Positions 1-5,590 of a DNA stretch of 5,590 nucleotides are shown piece after piece; position 1 is the first letter of the stretch, and the number at the start of each line of letters is the position of its first letter. The translations under genes were made by a program, and so were the position numbers. Below the pieces are notes generated by a model, which saw only the letters and a program-made list of their open reading frames with translations, had not been told where the DNA came from and ran no database searches. The stretch spans positions 1 to 5,590 of the forward strand of contig CATLVA010000125.1 in the NCBI GenBank assembly GCA_950060715.1, written 5' to 3'. This DNA is from an uncultured Oligoflexia bacterium. Lineage in GTDB: Bacteria; Bdellovibrionota; Bacteriovoracia; Bacteriovoracales; Bacteriovoracaceae.

Positions 1-779
1 CCAGTAATTTGCTTACGATATTTATTTAAAGCCGTATTTAGTAGTCTCAAAACATGGAATTTATCAGCAATAATTTGAGCATTAGGAAAGAAGTCTTTGG
101 CAAAGCTTTTGTAGGTGGCAGATAGGTCCATAACTATATTTTTTACGTTTTCTCGACCTGGAATATATTTTAAGGCTGCCTGAACCTGTCCACTTATGCG
201 GCCAGGAACTAACTCTCTGACTCGCTTGTTATTATAGTCTACAACGATTGTGGCAAACTCCATGTGCCCATATTTTTTATTTCGACAAAAACTGTGTTCA
301 TCGATACCTATAGTCTTAGGCCAAGGATCATTTTTTCTTTTTCTCCACTCCAACTCAAGTTGGTCGTAGTGACGCTTATAAATAGTTTTTGAACCAACCT
401 TAGTATGCCTCTGAACGCCCTTGAGGTTAGCAAAGTTATGACAGGTAAATAGAATATGCCTTTGCATTCTCTGAGAGATTCTGGCCCCTTTATTCACTCC
501 ATTAATAGACTCGGTATGAACCTTCTTGCAGCCACAGCATCTGAATCTCTTTTTTTGGATTTTAATCATTTTGGTTTTATCTAGTTGAGGAGCATCCAGA
601 ATTGTGACTATTCTTCTGTCATGAACTTTAAAACACTCCAGCCCACAGTTGGGGCACCATGAGGACTTAGAGTCGGACTCAGTATGGTAGATGACACATT
701 TTTTCTGATGAATATGCTCAAATTTAATAAGTTTGAGTTTCGGTAATAGTAAAAATTTCGTAAGCTTTGATTCGGACAT
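1..779 (-). CDS. ISL3-family transposase, N-terminal 259 residues (partial)
   Basis: This is a DDE transposase that cuts and joins the ends of its own element. The frame is open from ATG (779-777) to the window edge. A zinc ribbon is visible as C42-x2-C45 and C81-x2-C84. It is followed by a helix-turn-helix-like stretch around residues 115-135 (NFANLKGVQRHTKVGSKTIY). The RNase H-like core begins at PWPKTIGIDEHSF with the first catalytic aspartate D160; the second is D218 in VMDLSATY. The catalytic glutamate lies off the window. The start is supported by AAGGA (790-786) six bases upstream of ATG and by alignment with the start of the element B transposase. Over residues 150-259 more than half the positions match that neighbour by eye. 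No frameshift or stop is seen, so the visible part looks intact. The start codon sits inside an inverted-repeat arm described separately. Confidence 0.93.
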   Translation of the reverse strand, partial: MSESKLTKFLLLPKLKLIKFEHIHQKKCVIYHTESDSKSSWCPNCGLECFKVHDRRIVTILDAPQLDKTKMIKIQKKRFRCCGCKKVHTESINGVNKGARISQRMQRHILFTCHNFANLKGVQRHTKVGSKTIYKRHYDQLELEWRKRKNDPWPKTIGIDEHSFCRNKKYGHMEFATIVVDYNNKRVRELVPGRISGQVQAALKYIPGRENVKNIVMDLSATYKSFAKDFFPNAQIIADKFHVLRLLNTALNKYRKQIT

Positions 780-843
780 AGGATTTCCTTTTAGTTAAAA
801 TTTTTGGTGGTACATAAATTCTAACCGATTGATTTCCTATGTC
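775..843 (-). repeat. 9-bp inverted repeat over the element A transposase start codon
   Basis: The outer arm (835-843, reading GACATAGGA on the minus strand) lies at the element terminus. The inner arm (775-783, TCCTATGTC on the minus strand) contains the ATG at 779-777. The arms pair perfectly over 9 bp across a 51-nt loop, and pairing resumes after one mismatch further out. AAGGA (790-786) lies in the loop three bases from the stem. In an RNA entering from upstream, the folded form would bury the AUG beside its ribosome binding site. Element B has the same arrangement with two compensated base differences. What is seen is the repeat; a role in translational control is inferred. Confidence 0.75.
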
Positions 844-845
844 TG
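818..845 (-). promoter_or_regulatory. possible element A transposase promoter
   Basis: TAGAAT (823-818) is a fair -10 box. CAGACA (845-840) is 16 bases upstream and matches four of six -35 consensus positions. Transcription would begin around 810, downstream of the outer inverted-repeat arm. The corresponding place in element B carries TAAAAT (2121-2116) but no convincing -35 at normal spacing, so this is a weak call. Confidence 0.3.
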
Positions 846-899
846 TCTATCTTTCCTTAACGCAGAGAAAACACCATCAGGTGTGAAGAAAGTTAAAAT
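846..899. other. 54-bp spacer between the two insertion sequences
   Basis: This sequence lies between the upstream end of element A and the downstream end of element B. It could be host DNA left between two insertions, or part of either element if the ends are misplaced. It contains the terminator-like hairpin listed next. One plus-strand frame from 847 is open across it but has no start codon, and it gives no recognisable protein. Confidence 0.6.
863..884 (-). terminator. weak terminator-like hairpin downstream of the element B transposase
   Basis: On the minus strand ACACC-TGAT-GGTGT forms a 5-bp stem with a 4-nt loop (884-871), followed directly by TTTCTCTG. It begins about 15 bases after the transposase stop. 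The stem is short and the T tract is interrupted, so any termination would be inefficient. If it works, it would limit read-through from element B into element A. Confidence 0.35.
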
Positions 900-2077
900 C
901 AGGCATTAAGAACTCGCAGTCTGTAATTTGCAAAGTTTCTAAATCCGTAAGCCCTTTTAATTATTGATTTTGCAACATTGTTAAAGCCTTCGGTTTTAGC
1001 ATTTGTAATCCTAGTTTTAAAAAAGTTCAAGATTTCATTTTTCCAGTTCATCAATGTTTTTCGTAAACGCTTTAATTCTTTAACTTTAGAATAAGCGAGC
1101 CAATCCAGAATCTTAACCATACACCTTCTAGCCTTGTTGTAACCTCGACATCGATAGAGTCGATGAAGTGCTTCTTTTGCCATGTAAACTTCTTTTAAAT
1201 CAGGATGATCTTCTAGCCAGCGCTCTATGGCCTTTCTTTCAAAGACCTTAAGCTTAAATCCATTTTTGAGAAGCATTTTGCGAAGAGGATGTTTACGTTT
1301 ATCTCCGGTAATTTCCTTTCGCATACGGTTTATCGTTGGGTGAAGAAGGCGAACGACATGAAAGTGATCAGCGGTGATCTCAGCGTTTGGGAAGAAGTCT
1401 TTCACAAAGCTCCTATACGTCCCAGACAAGTCCATGGTGACATTCTTTACATTCTCTCGGCCTGGGATGTGCTTGAGCATCACTTGCAGATCAACGCTTG
1501 ATCGCGTAGGTAGAAGCTCTCTTGGCCTAGAGTTATTGTAATCAACAATCATGGTAACAAAGTCTCTGTGTCCTCGTTTTTTGTTTTTCATAAAGCCGTG
1601 CTCATCAATACCAATTGTCTTAGGCCATGGTGTTTTGTCTCGCATACGTTGTTTGAGCTCCAGTTGTTTGTAAAAGCGCTGATAGATGGTTTTAGAGCCG
1701 CAAGATGTATGTTTTCTGACTTTTTTGAGATCAGCGAAGTTCTCACAAGACCAAGAGATTTCTCGTTGCATGCGCTCAGTAAGTCGCTTTCCTGGGAGGA
1801 TTCCAGGGACCTTTTCATTAAAAGTTTTGTGGCAGTTTCTACATCGGTACCTTTTAGTTTTAAGCTTGAGAATCTGAAGCCTTCCTCGAACTAAAGTATC
1901 CTTGAGGGTTCTCTCACAGTACTGATGGATATAGACTTTATCAGAGCTGCAATGAGGGCAAGGAGCTCTTTTGAGCTTGGTCTTGCAATCAATATATATA
2001 AAACGCTTAAAACTTCTCACATGAGTGATTTCAAGGTTTGGCAAAACGATTAAAGATGATAATTTTAATCCGGGCAT
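899..2077 (-). CDS. ISL3-family transposase, full length (392 aa)
   Basis: This is a complete DDE transposase for cut-and-paste movement of element B. Visible in order are a zinc ribbon (C40-x2-C43 and C79-x2-C82), a DNA-binding region around residues 110-135 (ENFADLKKVRKHTSCGSKTI), and the RNase H-like fold. That fold carries D158 in IGIDEHGF, D216 in TMDLSGTY and E363 in NAKTEGFNN, split by a basic, helical insertion (about residues 255-355). These are the expected catalytic residues and spacing for ISL3 (DDE_Tnp_ISL3), and the length is in the family's usual range of roughly 400. The ATG (2077-2075) has AAGGA (2088-2084) six bases upstream. The TGA stop (901-899) overlaps the first base pairs of the terminal repeat, so the gene fills the element almost end to end. 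Nothing suggests inactivation. Confidence 0.96.
   Translation of the reverse strand: MPGLKLSSLIVLPNLEITHVRSFKRFIYIDCKTKLKRAPCPHCSSDKVYIHQYCERTLKDTLVRGRLQILKLKTKRYRCRNCHKTFNEKVPGILPGKRLTERMQREISWSCENFADLKKVRKHTSCGSKTIYQRFYKQLELKQRMRDKTPWPKTIGIDEHGFMKNKKRGHRDFVTMIVDYNNSRPRELLPTRSSVDLQVMLKHIPGRENVKNVTMDLSGTYRSFVKDFFPNAEITADHFHVVRLLHPTINRMRKEITGDKRKHPLRKMLLKNGFKLKVFERKAIERWLEDHPDLKEVYMAKEALHRLYRCRGYNKARRCMVKILDWLAYSKVKELKRLRKTLMNWKNEILNFFKTRITNAKTEGFNNVAKSIIKRAYGFRNFANYRLRVLNA
900..916 (+). repeat. element B terminal inverted repeat, transposase 3' side
   Basis: CAGGCATTAAGAACTCG matches CAGGCATAAGACTCG, the reverse complement of 2127-2141, with two single-base insertions. The repeat overlaps the transposase stop codon and its last five sense codons (901-916). 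Confidence 0.75.
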
Positions 2078-2139
2078 AAGATTTCCTTTGTTTAAATATT
2101 TTTGTGGTTATTAATATTTTACACAACGAGTCTTATGCC
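2073..2139 (-). repeat. 9-bp inverted repeat over the element B transposase start codon
   Basis: The outer arm (2131-2139, GGCATAAGA on the minus strand) is the core of the terminal repeat. The inner arm (2073-2081, TCTTATGCC on the minus strand) contains the ATG at 2077-2075. Pairing is perfect over 9 bp with a 49-nt loop, and AAGGA (2088-2084) lies in the loop two bases from the stem. The outer arm is probably also a transposase recognition sequence. The inner arm is thus a third, internal copy of the terminal core, in addition to those at 900 and 2131. Element A has the equivalent structure with a different but self-complementary sequence. Confidence 0.78.
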
Positions 2140-2141
2140 TG
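2127..2141 (-). repeat. element B terminal inverted repeat, transposase 5' side
   Basis: CGAGTCTTATGCCTG on the plus strand is the partner of 900-916. Its inner flank carries TAAAAT (2121-2116, minus strand), a possible -10 box for the transposase gene, placed so that a transcript from it would begin inside the element and lack this arm. Confidence 0.75.
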
Positions 2142-2149
2142 ACTCTTAA

Positions 2150-2211
2150 ACTCTAAATGCTATATGTTACATAGAATTGGGTGATGAACCTTACTTTTTC
2201 AGGCTGGTAGG
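2150..2211 (+). pseudogene. possible frameshifted 5' remnant of the following ORF
   Basis: The frame at 2150 (after TAA at 2147) reads LNAICYIELGDEPYFF and then leaves the frame of the next ORF at TTTTT (2195-2199). Adding one T to this run would join it to QAGRLQYHEMHKL and the rest of the 150-codon ORF. It has no ATG, GTG or ribosome binding site of its own, and it begins at the edge of element B. The reading is inferred from continuity of protein-like sequence alone. Confidence 0.35.
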
Positions 2212-2664
2212 TTGCAATATCATGAAATGCACAAGCTTGCATCAGAGCTAGTAACCATTTCCAGGGATATAAGAGATGGAAATAAAGATTTCTTGCATCT
2301 TGCTGATCATAAATTCGTAAGAAGATATTTAACTGAAGAACAGCTAGAACAATTATGTGAAGGCACTTTTGTATACACAAAAATTACTCCTAATACGTCT
2401 AAAGAATTCTGGATGATTTTTACTTCAGAGAATATTGAGTCTGAAATTGCTATTAAAGTTGAAGATGATATTCAAAGTATTGCTGACTATATACTTACAT
2501 TGACCACTAGGCTGAAACCATTATTTATTGATTCTGGCGATGGAAAATTGGACCAAGAGCGAATTGAAGAACAACTAAATAGGCTAGCCGGTAATATGCT
2601 ATTTATATTTGACGAACTTTCTCTTGAGGTTTCAAATCGTAAGGAAATAGAGTCTTTAAGGTAA
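2212..2664 (+). CDS. hypothetical protein, probably a 5'-truncated gene remnant (150 codons)
   Basis: I do not recognise this protein. The frame is open from just after a TGA at 2185 to TAA at 2662-2664. The possible starts are TTG (2212) and ATG (2227). Neither has a properly spaced Shine-Dalgarno sequence, which argues that the true N-terminus is lost or in another frame. The product would be soluble, acidic and mostly helical, with no signal peptide or membrane segment. A His-containing first helix (QYHEMHKLASEL) and a short stretch of beta character (TFVYTKI, FWMIFTSE) are followed by long amphipathic helices to the C-terminus (IEEQLNRLAGNMLFIFDELSLEV). It ends 15 bp from the convergent histidine kinase gene with no terminator visible between them. 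Even AT-rich codon use, like the kinase gene, supports real coding history. It may be a degraded host gene cut by element B. Confidence 0.5.
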   Translation: MQYHEMHKLASELVTISRDIRDGNKDFLHLADHKFVRRYLTEEQLEQLCEGTFVYTKITPNTSKEFWMIFTSENIESEIAIKVEDDIQSIADYILTLTTRLKPLFIDSGDGKLDQERIEEQLNRLAGNMLFIFDELSLEVSNRKEIESLR

Positions 2665-2679: not shown

Positions 2680-3828
2680 TTAGGCTTTATGCCAAGGAAG
2701 AGTTATTTCAAAGCATGTGTGACCGTCAAGTAACTTATAGTGAAGGTCACCATCCATTTTATTTAACAGCTTTTTTGAAATACTAAGGCCCATCCCAGTT
2801 CCTTTGTTTACGTCTTTAGTCGTAAAAAATGGATTAAAGATATCTTTTACAATCTTATCTGGAATTCCTTTACCTGAATCGATAATTCTGAGGTGAAAAA
2901 CCTCGCTAAGCTCAGACTCAATTCTAATCCATGCAGATGCTTGTGTTTCTATTGCGTCTCTGGCGTTATTAAGAATATTAAGTAAGGCTTGCAAGAGTGT
3001 AACCTTATTTACTCTTAGATTAATTTCTCTATGTTCACCAGAACTTGCCACTTCAATTTTTATTCCATTATTTTTAAAATTATTTTCAGTAATGAGAAGA
3101 AGGTCTTCAATAAAAGTTCCAAGATGAATTTCCTCTACCTCTTCCTGTGAAGCGTCTCTGGAGAGATACCTCATGTTGTTTGTTATCTTGGCGATTCTTT
3201 GCGCTGTTGAAATGGTTTGGTCAATTCTATTTTCAAAACTTTCGAGATCTATTTTTCCTTTAGCTATCATTTTTTTAAGTATGCCTAAATTGCCTAAAAC
3301 GACTGATAGTGGGTTATTTATTTCGTGAGCAATACCACTTGCCATTTCACCTAAGCTTCGAATCTTTTCAGAATGGATCAAATGCTCTTGAGCTTCTTTG
3401 AGCTCTTCAAGCGTTTTGGTCATTTCGATTTCCATATTCTTGCGGTCAGAGATATCTGTGTAGATTCCTAAAATTCCAATAACATTACCGCTCTGATCAT
3501 GTAGTGGTACTTTACTTGTGAGTAGGGTACTTGTTGATCCATCAAGCTGTTTTTGAGTCTCTTCTAAGTTTAAGATTGGAGTATCTGTACTCATAACTTT
3601 TCGATCTATAGATCGAAAAAACTCAGCTTCTTCTTTAGTCCAGCAGCCGTCAAAATCGTTTTTACCTATAATTGAAGCCACGTCTTTAAAGCCTGCAGAC
3701 ACTGCGAATTGTCTGTTTGCTCCGAGGTATCTAAGGTTCGTATCCTTCCAAAAAATATAATAGGGTATATTATCTATGATCTGGTCTAGTACTATATTGA
3801 CCGATCTTTTACTGTTTAAATTACTCAT
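2680..3828 (-). CDS. soluble PAS-domain sensor histidine kinase
   Basis: This is a two-component sensor kinase that should autophosphorylate on a histidine and pass the phosphate to a response regulator not present here. A single PAS domain occupies about residues 12-128 (NIPYYIFWKDTNLRYLGANRQF to GILGIYTDISDRK). A coiled-coil linker spans about 129-158. The dimerisation domain has its H box at GIAHEINNPL with phospho-acceptor H168. The ATPase domain shows the N box around N284-N288 (NILNNARDA), the G1 box D317-S-G-K-G, the F box NPFFTTK (332-338) and the G2 box GTGMGLSI (343-350). All catalytic boxes are intact. No transmembrane segment or signal peptide is present, so it acts in the cytoplasm on an internal cue. 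The PAS domain lacks the LOV cysteine motif, and its ligand cannot be told. The start is ATG at 3828 with AGGTG (3837-3833) four bases upstream. It follows the cytochrome gene by 75 bp on the same strand. Confidence 0.96.
   Translation of the reverse strand: MSNLNSKRSVNIVLDQIIDNIPYYIFWKDTNLRYLGANRQFAVSAGFKDVASIIGKNDFDGCWTKEEAEFFRSIDRKVMSTDTPILNLEETQKQLDGSTSTLLTSKVPLHDQSGNVIGILGIYTDISDRKNMEIEMTKTLEELKEAQEHLIHSEKIRSLGEMASGIAHEINNPLSVVLGNLGILKKMIAKGKIDLESFENRIDQTISTAQRIAKITNNMRYLSRDASQEEVEEIHLGTFIEDLLLITENNFKNNGIKIEVASSGEHREINLRVNKVTLLQALLNILNNARDAIETQASAWIRIESELSEVFHLRIIDSGKGIPDKIVKDIFNPFFTTKDVNKGTGMGLSISKKLLNKMDGDLHYKLLDGHTCFEITLPWHKA
3597..3620. repeat. perfect 24-bp palindrome within the kinase gene
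   Basis: A core CGATCTATAGATCG (3602-3615) is flanked by T5 on the left and A5 on the right, making 24 bases that equal their own reverse complement. It lies in the PAS-coding region, over residues FFRSIDRK (about 70-77). As a single strand it could form a 10-bp stem with a UAUA loop. It contains two GATC sites. No known site is recognised. Confidence 0.9.
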
Positions 3829-3903: not shown

Positions 3904-5590
3904 CTATCTTAGTTTCCTGGGTCTACTTCCTCTATGCTCTGTAATTCGTAATCTTCGAGCAATTTTGGCAAATACTTCCTCGAAGGCAGCTCGAGAAAAT
4001 TGTGTATTTCCTAGACGCTGAATTATAGTAGAAAACTCGGGATCCCCTTGTAGCGACGTTAGCGTAGCAATATCTGTTCCCAGTTCTGTCGCAGCAGTAG
4101 TTAATCCAACTGATTCTTCGTAGCGTTCAAAAAATTTAAAAACAGGCTCACTCGATTGATTTTTAGTACTAATTCCAAGAGCAGAACTTGCTTGTTCAAA
4201 AAGCTGTTGATCTATATCCATTGCTCGATTCACTACGGAGTTACCTGGGTACATATCGAGTACATAATCAGTAAGAAAGTCATAGCCATCTGTATTAAGA
4301 GCATAGTCTCTGATTTCATCATCATTTCTTTTCATTCCTTGGAAATGACAATTCATACATGAAATTCCATTGACGACAGTTTTGTCTTTTCTAAATATAT
4401 CTTGCACAATATCTGTTGGGCCTCGATCTAGTCTTTGGCCTTTTTCTGTCGCGAGGTAGTATGCTTGGAACCCATTTGGCAAATTGAAAATAATTTCTCC
4501 ACCTGCATGAGTAAATTCCAATTTTCCTCTTCCACGGACGCTATCAAAAGGAGTGATAGGGTTTCTTAGAAGGTCATTTCTTCCCTCACTACTATTGAAA
4601 TCATAACTCTTCCAGTAGGCACCGTATCTAAACTCATGCCGCTCAATCATTCTATTATTTTGAGAAACCCCTGAATCATAAAAACCGGCCCTTATCACAT
4701 TTCGATCTCGGATATTATCGAATGTATCTACTCCAACCATTCTTTCGAGTGATCTTTCCGTCTCTGGTAGCTCCAGTATTTCGTGATAGAGAGGTGGTTG
4801 AGAGCCCTCGTATACAAACCAGTCTGCACGCATATATGGCAGTTTTCCAAAACCGGCTCTAAACTCTTTGGATAAATATTCTCCGTGGGAGCGTGAAGTT
4901 TGTAGCTTGTAAGGATAGGCGCGGTATAATTCTTCCCATTTTTTGCGATCCCAGCCTAGTTCCCTTAAATCAAAGCGATAGACTTCGTTTCCAATATTTT
5001 CAAGTTTGACGATATTTTGCTCCCAAGAAAGCGAGTTCATGAGTTTTTCAGTCGCTTTTCTAAATAGTTCAAGTTTATCATCACTCACTCCTTGAGCGTA
5101 TAAGTGAGTCATGGTGAAGTACCTAAGGTTTTTTCTTTTATTAAGATCGAAATTTTTTAAATCATTTATTATGGTGTTTTCAACGATGTCTGTGTGGTCG
5201 ATAAACTGAACAGGATTTTGTCCTGGTTGAGGCTGGGCAGGTTGGGCTGCAGGATCAATAACTGTCCCTCCCTTGGCCATATAATTGATCCAGTCGAGAA
5301 CAGCTTGAACTTCCTGAGGAGATACCTTCTTTCCATAAGGAGGCATTACCGCATCATCTCCTCCTTGCATCTGGGCAATGATGAAAGAATTTTGAGGGTT
5401 TTTTAGATCCACATATTTACTATTGATCAGAGTATCTAAATTGGCAGCAAGTCCGAAGTCACCATCATTGGCTTTTGTATCATGGCAACGGACACAGTAA
5501 TTATTGAGTACTTTTTGGGCAGCTGACGTTTCTGGGGTAAGTGCGCTGGCTTGAGCAAGCGCTGAAGATTTCTGGAAAGAACTGTCAAAG
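3904..5590 (-). CDS. di-heme c-type cytochrome, N-terminus beyond the window (561 residues visible)
   Basis: This is probably an exported electron-transfer or redox-enzyme protein with two covalently bound hemes. The frame is open to the right edge. A GTG at 5412 is not the start, because a heme site lies upstream of it in frame. Visible residues 22-106 form a small cytochrome c domain with CVRCH (32-36, at 5496-5482) and a likely distal methionine in VMPPYG (M82). A Pro/Gln-rich linker follows (about 112-127, DPAAQPAQPQPGQNP). A large domain of about 430 residues begins at FIDHTDIVENTI and carries a second heme motif, CMNCH (411-415, at 4359-4345), in NGISCMNCHFQGM. Resemblance to planctomycete/deltaproteobacterial-type multidomain cytochromes is from memory only. 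The signal peptide, expected from the biology of heme attachment, would lie off the window. The C-terminus (TEHRGSRPRKLR) is basic. The substrate and redox partner are unknown. It sits upstream of the kinase gene on the same strand, which may be chance. Confidence 0.9.
   Translation of the reverse strand, partial: FDSSFQKSSALAQASALTPETSAAQKVLNNYCVRCHDTKANDGDFGLAANLDTLINSKYVDLKNPQNSFIIAQMQGGDDAVMPPYGKKVSPQEVQAVLDWINYMAKGGTVIDPAAQPAQPQPGQNPVQFIDHTDIVENTIINDLKNFDLNKRKNLRYFTMTHLYAQGVSDDKLELFRKATEKLMNSLSWEQNIVKLENIGNEVYRFDLRELGWDRKKWEELYRAYPYKLQTSRSHGEYLSKEFRAGFGKLPYMRADWFVYEGSQPPLYHEILELPETERSLERMVGVDTFDNIRDRNVIRAGFYDSGVSQNNRMIERHEFRYGAYWKSYDFNSSEGRNDLLRNPITPFDSVRGRGKLEFTHAGGEIIFNLPNGFQAYYLATEKGQRLDRGPTDIVQDIFRKDKTVVNGISCMNCHFQGMKRNDDEIRDYALNTDGYDFLTDYVLDMYPGNSVVNRAMDIDQQLFEQASSALGISTKNQSSEPVFKFFERYEESVGLTTAATELGTDIATLTSLQGDPEFSTIIQRLGNTQFSRAAFEEVFAKIARRLRITEHRGSRPRKLR

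What the first reader, a model, noticed from the sequence alone, without database searches (positions are those of the whole stretch)
775..2139. Covarying hairpin over the transposase start codon in two diverged ISL3 elements
In both insertion sequences the terminal core has a perfect 9-bp inverted copy that covers the transposase ATG: element A at 835-843 with 775-783, element B at 2131-2139 with 2073-2081. The arm sequences differ between elements (GACATAGGA and GGCATAAGA) at two positions, and in each element both arms changed together. Loop length is nearly the same (51 and 49 nt). Compensated change in otherwise diverged leaders is the classic sign of selected base pairing. An mRNA entering from outside would carry both arms and hide the AUG, whereas an mRNA starting between the arms would not. 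Such fold-back inhibition is established for IS10 and IS50; I know of no description for ISL3. An alternative is that the inner arm is a transposase binding site that must match the terminus, giving autorepression.
Basis: partly seen in the sequence, partly recalled or inferred. Interest (0 to 1): 0.8.

Follow-up and report, generated by a model that had tools for sequence, protein, structure and literature searches.

The report
Antisense-RNA hairpin over transposase start
Many members of one family of bacterial jumping genes carry a hairpin-shaped stretch over the start of the transposase gene that, by several signs in the sequence, probably encodes a short antisense RNA able to throttle that gene, a built-in brake of a kind known from a few other elements such as IS10.

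Summary
The reported hairpin is real in both elements, but the outer arm is not the IS terminus: the terminal repeat lies about 45-50 nt farther out. Covariation reaches far beyond two copies. Of 146 non-redundant ISL3 leaders 102 have a stem score >=9, against 3.4% of arm-swapped leaders and 10 of 255 neighbouring genes. Arms differ completely between lineages; GTG starts carry C opposite in 4 of 4 window-type elements, ATG starts in 5 of 60. New evidence points to the other strand. An antisense -10-like box (TANNNT) lies 5-9 nt outside the hairpin edge in 49 of 71 window-type elements (7.3 expected). In actinobacterial elements it sits at a fixed place in codons 3-5 in 39 of 44, with T at a silent third position. 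One-sided arm changes are A.C rather than G.U (44:5), i.e. wobbles in antisense. An antisense U-tract is clear in window-type and Firmicutes sets, weak in Actinobacteria. I conclude that the leader most likely encodes an IS10 RNA-OUT-like antisense RNA, with read-through fold-back as a second effect. No RNA evidence exists here; distant gammaproteobacterial ISL3 elements mostly lack it.

The parts
3..779 (-). ISL3-family transposase of element A (runs off the window)
   Evidence: ORF; DDE_Tnp_ISL3 E 1.1e-22
775..783 (-). A, inner arm over the start codon (777-779)
835..843 (-). A, outer arm; overlaps -35-like CAGACA (840-845)
818..823 (-). A, predicted sense -10 TAGAAT between the arms (16 nt from the -35); predicted mRNA start about 810
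   Evidence: 9 of 12; for conservation in relatives
761..766 (+). A, predicted antisense -10 TAAGCT, 7 nt outside the hairpin edge
   Evidence: for relatives
773..852 (+). A, predicted antisense RNA hairpin (3' end uncertain, poor U-tract)
   Evidence: -24.1 kcal/mol, z -5.12; for the tail
856..892 (-). A, terminal inverted repeat (about); TTCTTCACACC starts at 890
   Evidence: by comparison with relatives
899..2077 (-). ISL3-family transposase of element B, complete
   Evidence: DDE_Tnp_ISL3 E 4.8e-56
2073..2081 (-). B, inner arm over the start codon (2075-2077)
2131..2139 (-). B, outer arm
2116..2121 (-). B, predicted sense -10 TAAAAT between the arms; predicted mRNA start about 2108
   Evidence: conserved column
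2060..2065 (+). B, predicted antisense -10 TAATTT (overlaps GATAAT 2058-2063), 6 nt outside the hairpin edge
2071..2148 (+). B, predicted antisense RNA hairpin (3' end uncertain; no clear U-tract here)
   Evidence: -24.1 kcal/mol, z -6.68; for the tail
2155..2190 (-). B, left terminal region (about), GGTTCATCACCC starts at 2190
   Evidence: by comparison; not a tested end

Best explanation
The leader of these ISL3 elements encodes a short antisense RNA of about 70-80 nt. Its promoter lies on the opposite strand inside the first codons of the transposase gene, and it starts at the edge of the inner arm. It folds into one long hairpin closed by the two arms, followed in many elements by a U-rich tract (an intrinsic terminator), and it covers the Shine-Dalgarno sequence and start codon of the transposase mRNA. 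In window-type elements the transposase mRNA is predicted to start in the loop, so its first ~35-40 nt are complementary to the antisense loop and 5' half, the IS10 RNA-IN/RNA-OUT arrangement (recalled). The antisense RNA would hold transposase translation down as copies accumulate. Because the DNA is palindromic, a read-through mRNA from outside also folds and hides its own start codon. Shown: covarying palindrome, positions of -10-like boxes, A/U tract on average, predicted folds. Inferred: that the RNA is made, pairs and represses.
For: (1) Pairing conserved without sequence: stem >=9 in 102 of 146 leaders versus 3.4% of 1022 swapped and 10 of 255 control genes. In 40 pairs of leaders most alike in -50..-16 (>=50% identity, both with stem >=7), 92 pair positions changed on both sides and stayed Watson-Crick. 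(2) In a structure-blind, tree-aware scan of 4465 column pairs (75 window-type leaders) seven of the first nine ranks are helix pairs: -35/-26, -36/-25, -63/+3, -59/-1, -64/+4, -54/-6, -58/-2 (E 0.017, 0.083, 0.27, 1.1, 1.4, 2.0, 11). (3) GTG starts carry C opposite in 4 of 4 window-type elements, ATG starts in 5 of 60. (4) Antisense TANNNT 5-9 nt beyond the hairpin edge: 49 of 71 window-type elements with stem >=7, expected 7.3; over all 146 leaders 99, i.e. window-type 51 of 76, actinobacterial 37 of 47, Firmicutes 10 of 15, gammaproteobacterial 1 of 8. Actinobacteria with stem >=7: at +12..+7 in 39 of 44, background 0.0006 per position, with T at codon 4 position 3 in 39 of 44 versus 0.114 in codons 11-96. 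(5) Further actinobacterial elements scored after the rule was written down: 13 of 17 stem >=9, 13 of 17 antisense box at edge +5..9, both in 12, 14 of 17 at +12..+7. (6) A per 10 nt just before the outer arm, versus 30-40 nt out: 5.11 versus 2.70 (66 window-type), 6.23 versus 2.69 (13 Firmicutes). (7) One-sided arm changes: A.C 44, G.U 5, other 9.
Against: No RNA data. The inner part of the hairpin shows the opposite wobble bias (G.U 93, A.C 40). Predicted energies of sense and antisense are equal overall (sense lower in 58, antisense in 72 of 131). The A.C excess near the start codon is confounded by a possible -35 in the outer arm, by coding and by the Shine-Dalgarno sequence. In window-type elements the antisense box overlaps conserved codons and its T is at a third position in only 30 of 49, so protein constraint may contribute. 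The U-tract prediction failed in the held-out Actinobacteria (mean 1.59 A per 10 nt; discovery set 2.27 versus 1.18), and A and B themselves have poor tails. No clear antisense -35 was found. The promoter scan of 700-2200 found 3 sites against 3.5 in shuffles; one of them is another possible antisense promoter inside the hairpin of A (773-801). In Actinobacteria no sense -10 was seen (0 of 47 in -52..-33), so loop-to-mRNA-5'-end pairing is unsupported there. Distant gammaproteobacterial ISL3 elements mostly lack the hairpin (3 of 8 at score >=7; 3 of 15 at >=9, hairpin and box together in 2 of 15).
Confidence: 0.67

Rival explanations
1. Sense fold-back only: the palindrome exists so that mRNA entering from outside hides SD and start codon, while the element's own mRNA starts in the loop and is translatable.
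For: In window-type leaders TANNNT in -52..-33 in 70 of 76 (48.3 in shuffles); spacing from the outer CA to TANNNT is 16-17 in 32 of 65. Start zone unpaired 0.18 in read-through versus 0.58 in own mRNA, own higher in 74 of 75; control genes 0.38 versus 0.46. Sense G.U excess in the inner stem, 93:40.
Against: Does not predict the antisense box at the hairpin edge, the codon-4 third-base T, the A-run before the outer arm or the A.C-type one-sided changes. No sense -10 seen in the Actinobacteria, where the start zone opens little (0.36 to 0.43), although the SD zone opens from 0.23 to 0.45 with an assumed start.
Confidence: 0.22
2. DNA-level operator: the two arms are inverted binding sites of transposase or another repressor (autorepression).
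For: Inverted repeats flank the predicted promoter; in one sub-lineage (L096, L147, L149, L152, L154, L194) arm-like sequence also lies near the other end.
Against: Arms differ completely between elements whose terminal repeats stay GGCTCTTC-like. Arm copies with <=1 mismatch near the 3' end in 21 of 107 elements, several of them hits of arms shorter than 9 nt. Centre-to-centre distance 28-80 nt with no 10.5-bp phasing, R 0.08, n 102.
Confidence: 0.05
3. No selection on pairing: template-switch repair at quasi-palindromes keeps the arms alike (mutational homogenisation).
For: Such a process is known in principle (recalled, not tested) and would also give paired changes.
Against: The palindrome lies over SD/start with an adjacent antisense box in 99 of 146 leaders; control genes rarely have such palindromes (10 of 255 at >=9); it persists over several phyla.
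Confidence: 0.03

Closest known systems
IS10 RNA-OUT / RNA-IN antisense control, with fold-back of read-through mRNA
   Same: Short antisense stem-loop RNA from a promoter inside the element, overlapping the 5' end, SD and start codon of the transposase mRNA; the same palindrome would make read-through mRNA fold back (IS10 details recalled; a passage of PMC4265352 states that IS10 encodes an antisense RNA binding the translation initiation region).
   Different: Unrelated transposase family; arms reach over the start codon or end just before it; antisense -10-like box lies within codons 3-7; no RNA evidence here.
ISPpu9 Asr9 and 5'-UTR structure (PMC8450116, passages seen)
   Same: Antisense RNA complementary to a structured transposase leader that buries the ribosome-binding site.
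   Different: Asr9 was proposed to stimulate translation and a second RNA (Ssr9) counteracts it; ISL3 is not mentioned in that text (0 occurrences).
IS256 asRNAs in enterococci (PMC10266640, passages seen)
   Same: Antisense RNA at the transposase start region from a sigma-70-type promoter; removing its -10 raised a reporter.
   Different: IS256 family; loss of the asRNA also lowered circle formation; no covarying palindrome in the passages seen.
IS30 and IS200 antisense RNAs (named in PMC8450116 passages; details recalled)
   Same: Antisense control of transposase translation.
   Different: Other families; not compared by sequence here.

Membership tests
ISL3 insertion sequence family | DDE_Tnp_ISL3 transposase | tested here: met
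   A E 1.1e-22 (partial), B E 4.8e-56
ISL3 insertion sequence family | terminal inverted repeats beginning GGCTCTTC-like, 8-bp target duplications (PMC11448079 passages) | tested here: inconclusive
   GGCTCTTC-like motif upstream in 67 of 94 relatives examined; A has TTCTTCACACC, B GGTTCATCACCC; neither element has both ends in the window and duplications were not tested
IS10-type antisense control (works like) | promoter inside the element opposing the transposase promoter | tested here: inconclusive
   -10-like boxes at a fixed place; no clear -35 and no transcript data
IS10-type antisense control (works like) | short, single stable stem-loop antisense RNA | tested here: met
   by prediction only: folds of A and B antisense, z -5.12 and -6.68; covariation
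IS10-type antisense control (works like) | antisense loop complementary to the 5' end of the transposase mRNA | tested here: inconclusive
   holds if the mRNA starts about -31, predicted from the -10 in window-type elements; no sense -10 in Actinobacteria
IS10-type antisense control (works like) | antisense RNA present and inhibiting translation in trans | not testable with these tools
   needs RNA mapping and reporters
Fold-back inhibition of read-through mRNA | both arms only in transcripts from outside; SD/AUG paired there and open in own mRNA | tested here: met
   window-type set only and by prediction; not supported in Actinobacteria, where no sense -10 was found

The most novel reading that the evidence does not exclude
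One large part of the ISL3 family, across Bdellovibrionota, Actinomycetota, Bacillota and some Pseudomonadota, carries a common or repeatedly maintained cis-antisense RNA system in which a single palindrome serves as sense -35/-10, antisense RNA body, antisense terminator and start-codon lock. Its antisense promoter is written into the codons of the transposase N-terminus and its apical loop (TTACCAC / TTGCGACGC) is conserved as the first contact with the mRNA. It would be among the most widely conserved regulatory RNAs of insertion sequences.
Probability: 0.52. Interest if true: 0.82.

Novelty: new member of a known kind. Interest (0 to 1): 0.72.

Why it matters
ISL3 elements are common, also on plasmids (4157 of 72,556 plasmid records matched transposase B at E <= 1e-3), yet the listings and passages I saw describe no control of their transposase. 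A widely shared antisense RNA would explain how these elements limit their own expression and copy number. It would also give a searchable RNA family: in 10 sources holding such leaders no Rfam model matched apart from two tRNAs. And it would provide a large natural series of covarying antisense/target pairs for studying how such RNAs diverge so that each element may inhibit only itself.

Tried and rejected
Counting G.U against A.C beside the longest Watson-Crick run was confounded by base composition; it was replaced by matched counts and by changes between similar leaders, which still carry promoter and coding confounders and were taken only from leaders with stem >=7. Comparing sense and antisense folding energy did not decide overall; only the 13 Firmicutes favoured antisense (12 of 13). 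The tree-aware scan on 145 leaders, and on 47 actinobacterial leaders, gave 1 and 0 pairs at E<0.05, perhaps because arm spacing varies and the arms misalign; on the window-type set 1 pair passed E<0.05, so I rely there on ranks plus the swap controls. The stem cut of >=7 proved weak (24% of swapped leaders and 68 of 255 control genes reach it), hence >=9. Arm-like matches at the stop codon of B, L003 and L137 were taken as coincidence with conserved last codons, not tested. A search for an antisense -35 was negative or weak.

Rows dropped before counts: 204 sequences gave 129 candidate starts, 91 kept as unique; of 57 actinobacterial candidates only those with a start at the expected distance were used; of 154 leaders 146 were kept at <=90% identity; plasmid loci L216 and L218 were left out for lack of a trustworthy start; of 20 held-out actinobacterial regions 17, and of 29 gammaproteobacterial loci 15, gave a usable start. 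The group called Bdel in scripts is the set of window-type relatives; most are Bdellovibrionota MAGs, but it includes two viral contigs and MAGs labelled otherwise. Literature: 10 searches, seen as listings, plus passages of PMC8450116, PMC4265352, PMC11448079 and PMC10266640, showed no description of a leader hairpin or antisense RNA in ISL3; none of the searches combined ISL3 with the word antisense, so absence from print is not established.
Full report
WHAT IS THERE. The window holds two diverged ISL3-family transposase genes on the minus strand, A (3-779, cut by the window edge) and B (899-2077), 49% identical over 260 aligned positions. The reported arms are exactly where stated and perfectly complementary. 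The sense leaders fold with z -5.67 and -4.24. The outer arm is not the terminus. Of 94 relatives with stem >=9 and enough upstream sequence, 67 show a GGCTCTTC-like terminal motif, at a median -117.5 (window-type), -123 (actinobacterial) and -131.5 (Firmicutes), i.e. a median 49.5, 63 and 68.5 nt outside the outer arm; 27 show no such motif and 3 have it within 35 nt. PMC11448079 (passages seen) gives GGCTCTTCG as an ISL3 terminus.

HOW GENERAL. From searches and fetches I assembled 146 non-redundant leaders: 76 window-type (mostly Bdellovibrionota), 47 actinobacterial, 15 Firmicutes, 8 gammaproteobacterial. With a strand-symmetric stem score, >=7 is reached by 71 of 76, 44 of 47, 13 of 15 and 3 of 8. 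Since >=7 is also reached by 24% of swapped leaders and 68 of 255 neighbouring genes, the sharper cut is >=9: 102 of 146 versus 3.4% of 1022 swapped and 10 of 255 control genes. The arms share no common sequence: GGCATAAGA, GGATCCATC, CGGGGGCA, GGCACTTTAATC, GCTCGTGGCC, GTCGAGGTCC. In Actinobacteria the inner arm usually ends just before the start codon (edge -1 in 28 of 44); in window-type elements it usually includes it. ISPfr2 (L219) and a Legionella plasmid element (L204) have 12-bp perfect stems; ISPpu12, ISKpn25, ISKox3 and ISEc53 show no convincing one.

COVARIATION. In 40 pairs of leaders most alike in -50..-16 (>=50% identity, both with stem >=7) 254 pair positions are unchanged, 92 changed on both sides and stayed Watson-Crick, 23 changed on both sides without, and 58 changed on one side only. 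L138 and L143, 94% identical in that region, differ by ATG to GTG with T to C opposite. Over the window-type set, GTG starts have C opposite in 4 of 4, ATG starts in 5 of 60 (Fisher P 2e-4, not corrected for relatedness). Only -35/-26 passes E<0.05 (0.017); the rest run from 0.083 to 11. On 145 mixed leaders one pair passes, on 47 actinobacterial ones none.

ARCHITECTURE. In window-type elements a -10 box (T 91%, A 97%, last T 99%) lies in the 5' side of an inner stem, most often 16-17 nt from a conserved CA in the outer arm (32 of 65). The apical loop carries a TTACCAC / TTGCGACGC-like motif, where the mRNA would start. In Actinobacteria no such sense -10 is seen (0 of 47).

WHICH STRAND. Four observations bear on this. 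First, one-sided arm changes between similar leaders are A.C 44, G.U 5, other 9: on the opposite strand the A.C cases are G.U wobbles. Near the start codon the whole set shows A.C 45 versus G.U 7 and in the SD zone 91 versus 51, but the inner stem shows the reverse, 40 versus 93, and sense and antisense energies are equal overall. So this sign alone does not decide; it is partly confounded by a -35, by codons and by the SD. Second, antisense TANNNT boxes are concentrated 5-9 nt outside the hairpin edge, the right distance for a transcript starting at the edge: 49 of 71 window-type elements, 7.3 expected. Their T is at a third codon position in 30 of 49, so protein constraint may add to it. In Actinobacteria 39 of 44 have the box at +12..+7 with background 0.0006 per position, because codon 4 ends in T in 39 of 44 although T is 0.114 at third positions of codons 11-96. 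That is a constraint at a mostly silent site across very different N-termini. Third, sense is A-rich just before the outer arm, so antisense has a U-tract after the hairpin: 5.11 versus 2.70 A per 10 nt (66 window-type), 6.23 versus 2.69 (13 Firmicutes), 2.27 versus 1.18 (44 Actinobacteria). Fourth, after writing the rules down I scored 17 usable of 20 further actinobacterial elements: 13 with stem >=9, 13 with the antisense box at edge +5..9, 12 with both, 14 at +12..+7; the third rule, an A-rich tract, was not met (mean 1.59 A per 10 nt). Several of the 17 share related arms, so they are not independent. Of 15 usable gammaproteobacterial loci 3 have stem >=9, 3 the box and 2 both, so the feature is not universal in ISL3.

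IN THE WINDOW. A has antisense TAAGCT at 761-766, 7 nt outside the edge; B has TAATTT at 2060-2065, 6 nt outside. The antisense hairpins fold at -24.1 kcal/mol each, z -5.12 and -6.68. Their tails (A: TCTATCTTTCCTTA; B: ACTCTTAAACTCTA) are poor U-tracts, so termination in these two copies is uncertain. A consensus scan finds the sense promoter of A (CAGACA, 16, TAGAAT) and, on the other strand, a second possible antisense promoter inside the hairpin of A (CGGACA, 17, TAAAAT, 773-801); the total, 3, is no more than in shuffles.

MECHANISM. I take the leader to encode an antisense RNA hairpin of the IS10 RNA-OUT type that binds the transposase mRNA 5' end, SD and start codon and limits translation; the palindrome also makes read-through mRNA self-locking. 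The pairing, the boxes and the predicted folds are shown; transcription, pairing in trans and repression are inferred. Operator and mutational explanations are disfavoured.

KNOWN OR NEW. Antisense control is reported for IS10, IS30, IS200, ISPpu9 and IS256 (passages). Ten literature searches, seen as listings, brought no account of either mechanism in ISL3, but none combined ISL3 with antisense. It would work like the IS10 system; homology with it was not tested and is not claimed. I rate it a new member of a known kind, unusual for its breadth and for an antisense promoter written into the transposase codons.

Noticed in passing
window 885-901: The outer end of A (about 890-892) lies within about 10 nt of the stop codon of B (899-901), and no right-end repeat of B is seen between them: A probably inserted into the right end of B.
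   Followed up: partly
window 871-884: The terminal repeat of A contains a small hairpin ACACCTGATGGTGT followed by TTTC, listed as terminator-like in the inward direction; similar sequence with a T-run occurs in L005 and L006. It could itself blunt read-through.
   Followed up: no
window 2103-2112 and 805-815; L055, L046, L004 leaders: An apical loop motif TTACCAC / TTACGAAGC / TTGCGACGC recurs across phyla although the stems below it differ; its role (mRNA start, first RNA contact, protein site) is unexplained.
   Followed up: partly
L096, L147, L149, L152, L154, L194: In this sub-lineage the outer arm (GGGGCA) belongs to or adjoins the terminal inverted repeat, and a copy lies near the other end.
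   Followed up: partly
inner stem of the leaders, partner < -16: The inner stem shows a sense G.U excess (93 G.U, 40 A.C; actinobacteria 32 to 10), opposite to the outer stem; not explained by the antisense model alone.
   Followed up: partly
window 3904-5589: Minus-strand ORF of at least 561 aa with CVRCH and CMNCH motifs (c-type-haem-like, motif recalled); its 502-aa form from an inner GTG matched no Pfam family.
   Followed up: no
window 2680-3828: PAS/HisKA/HATPase histidine kinase on the minus strand, next to an ORF 2212-2664 (+) without Pfam match.
   Followed up: no
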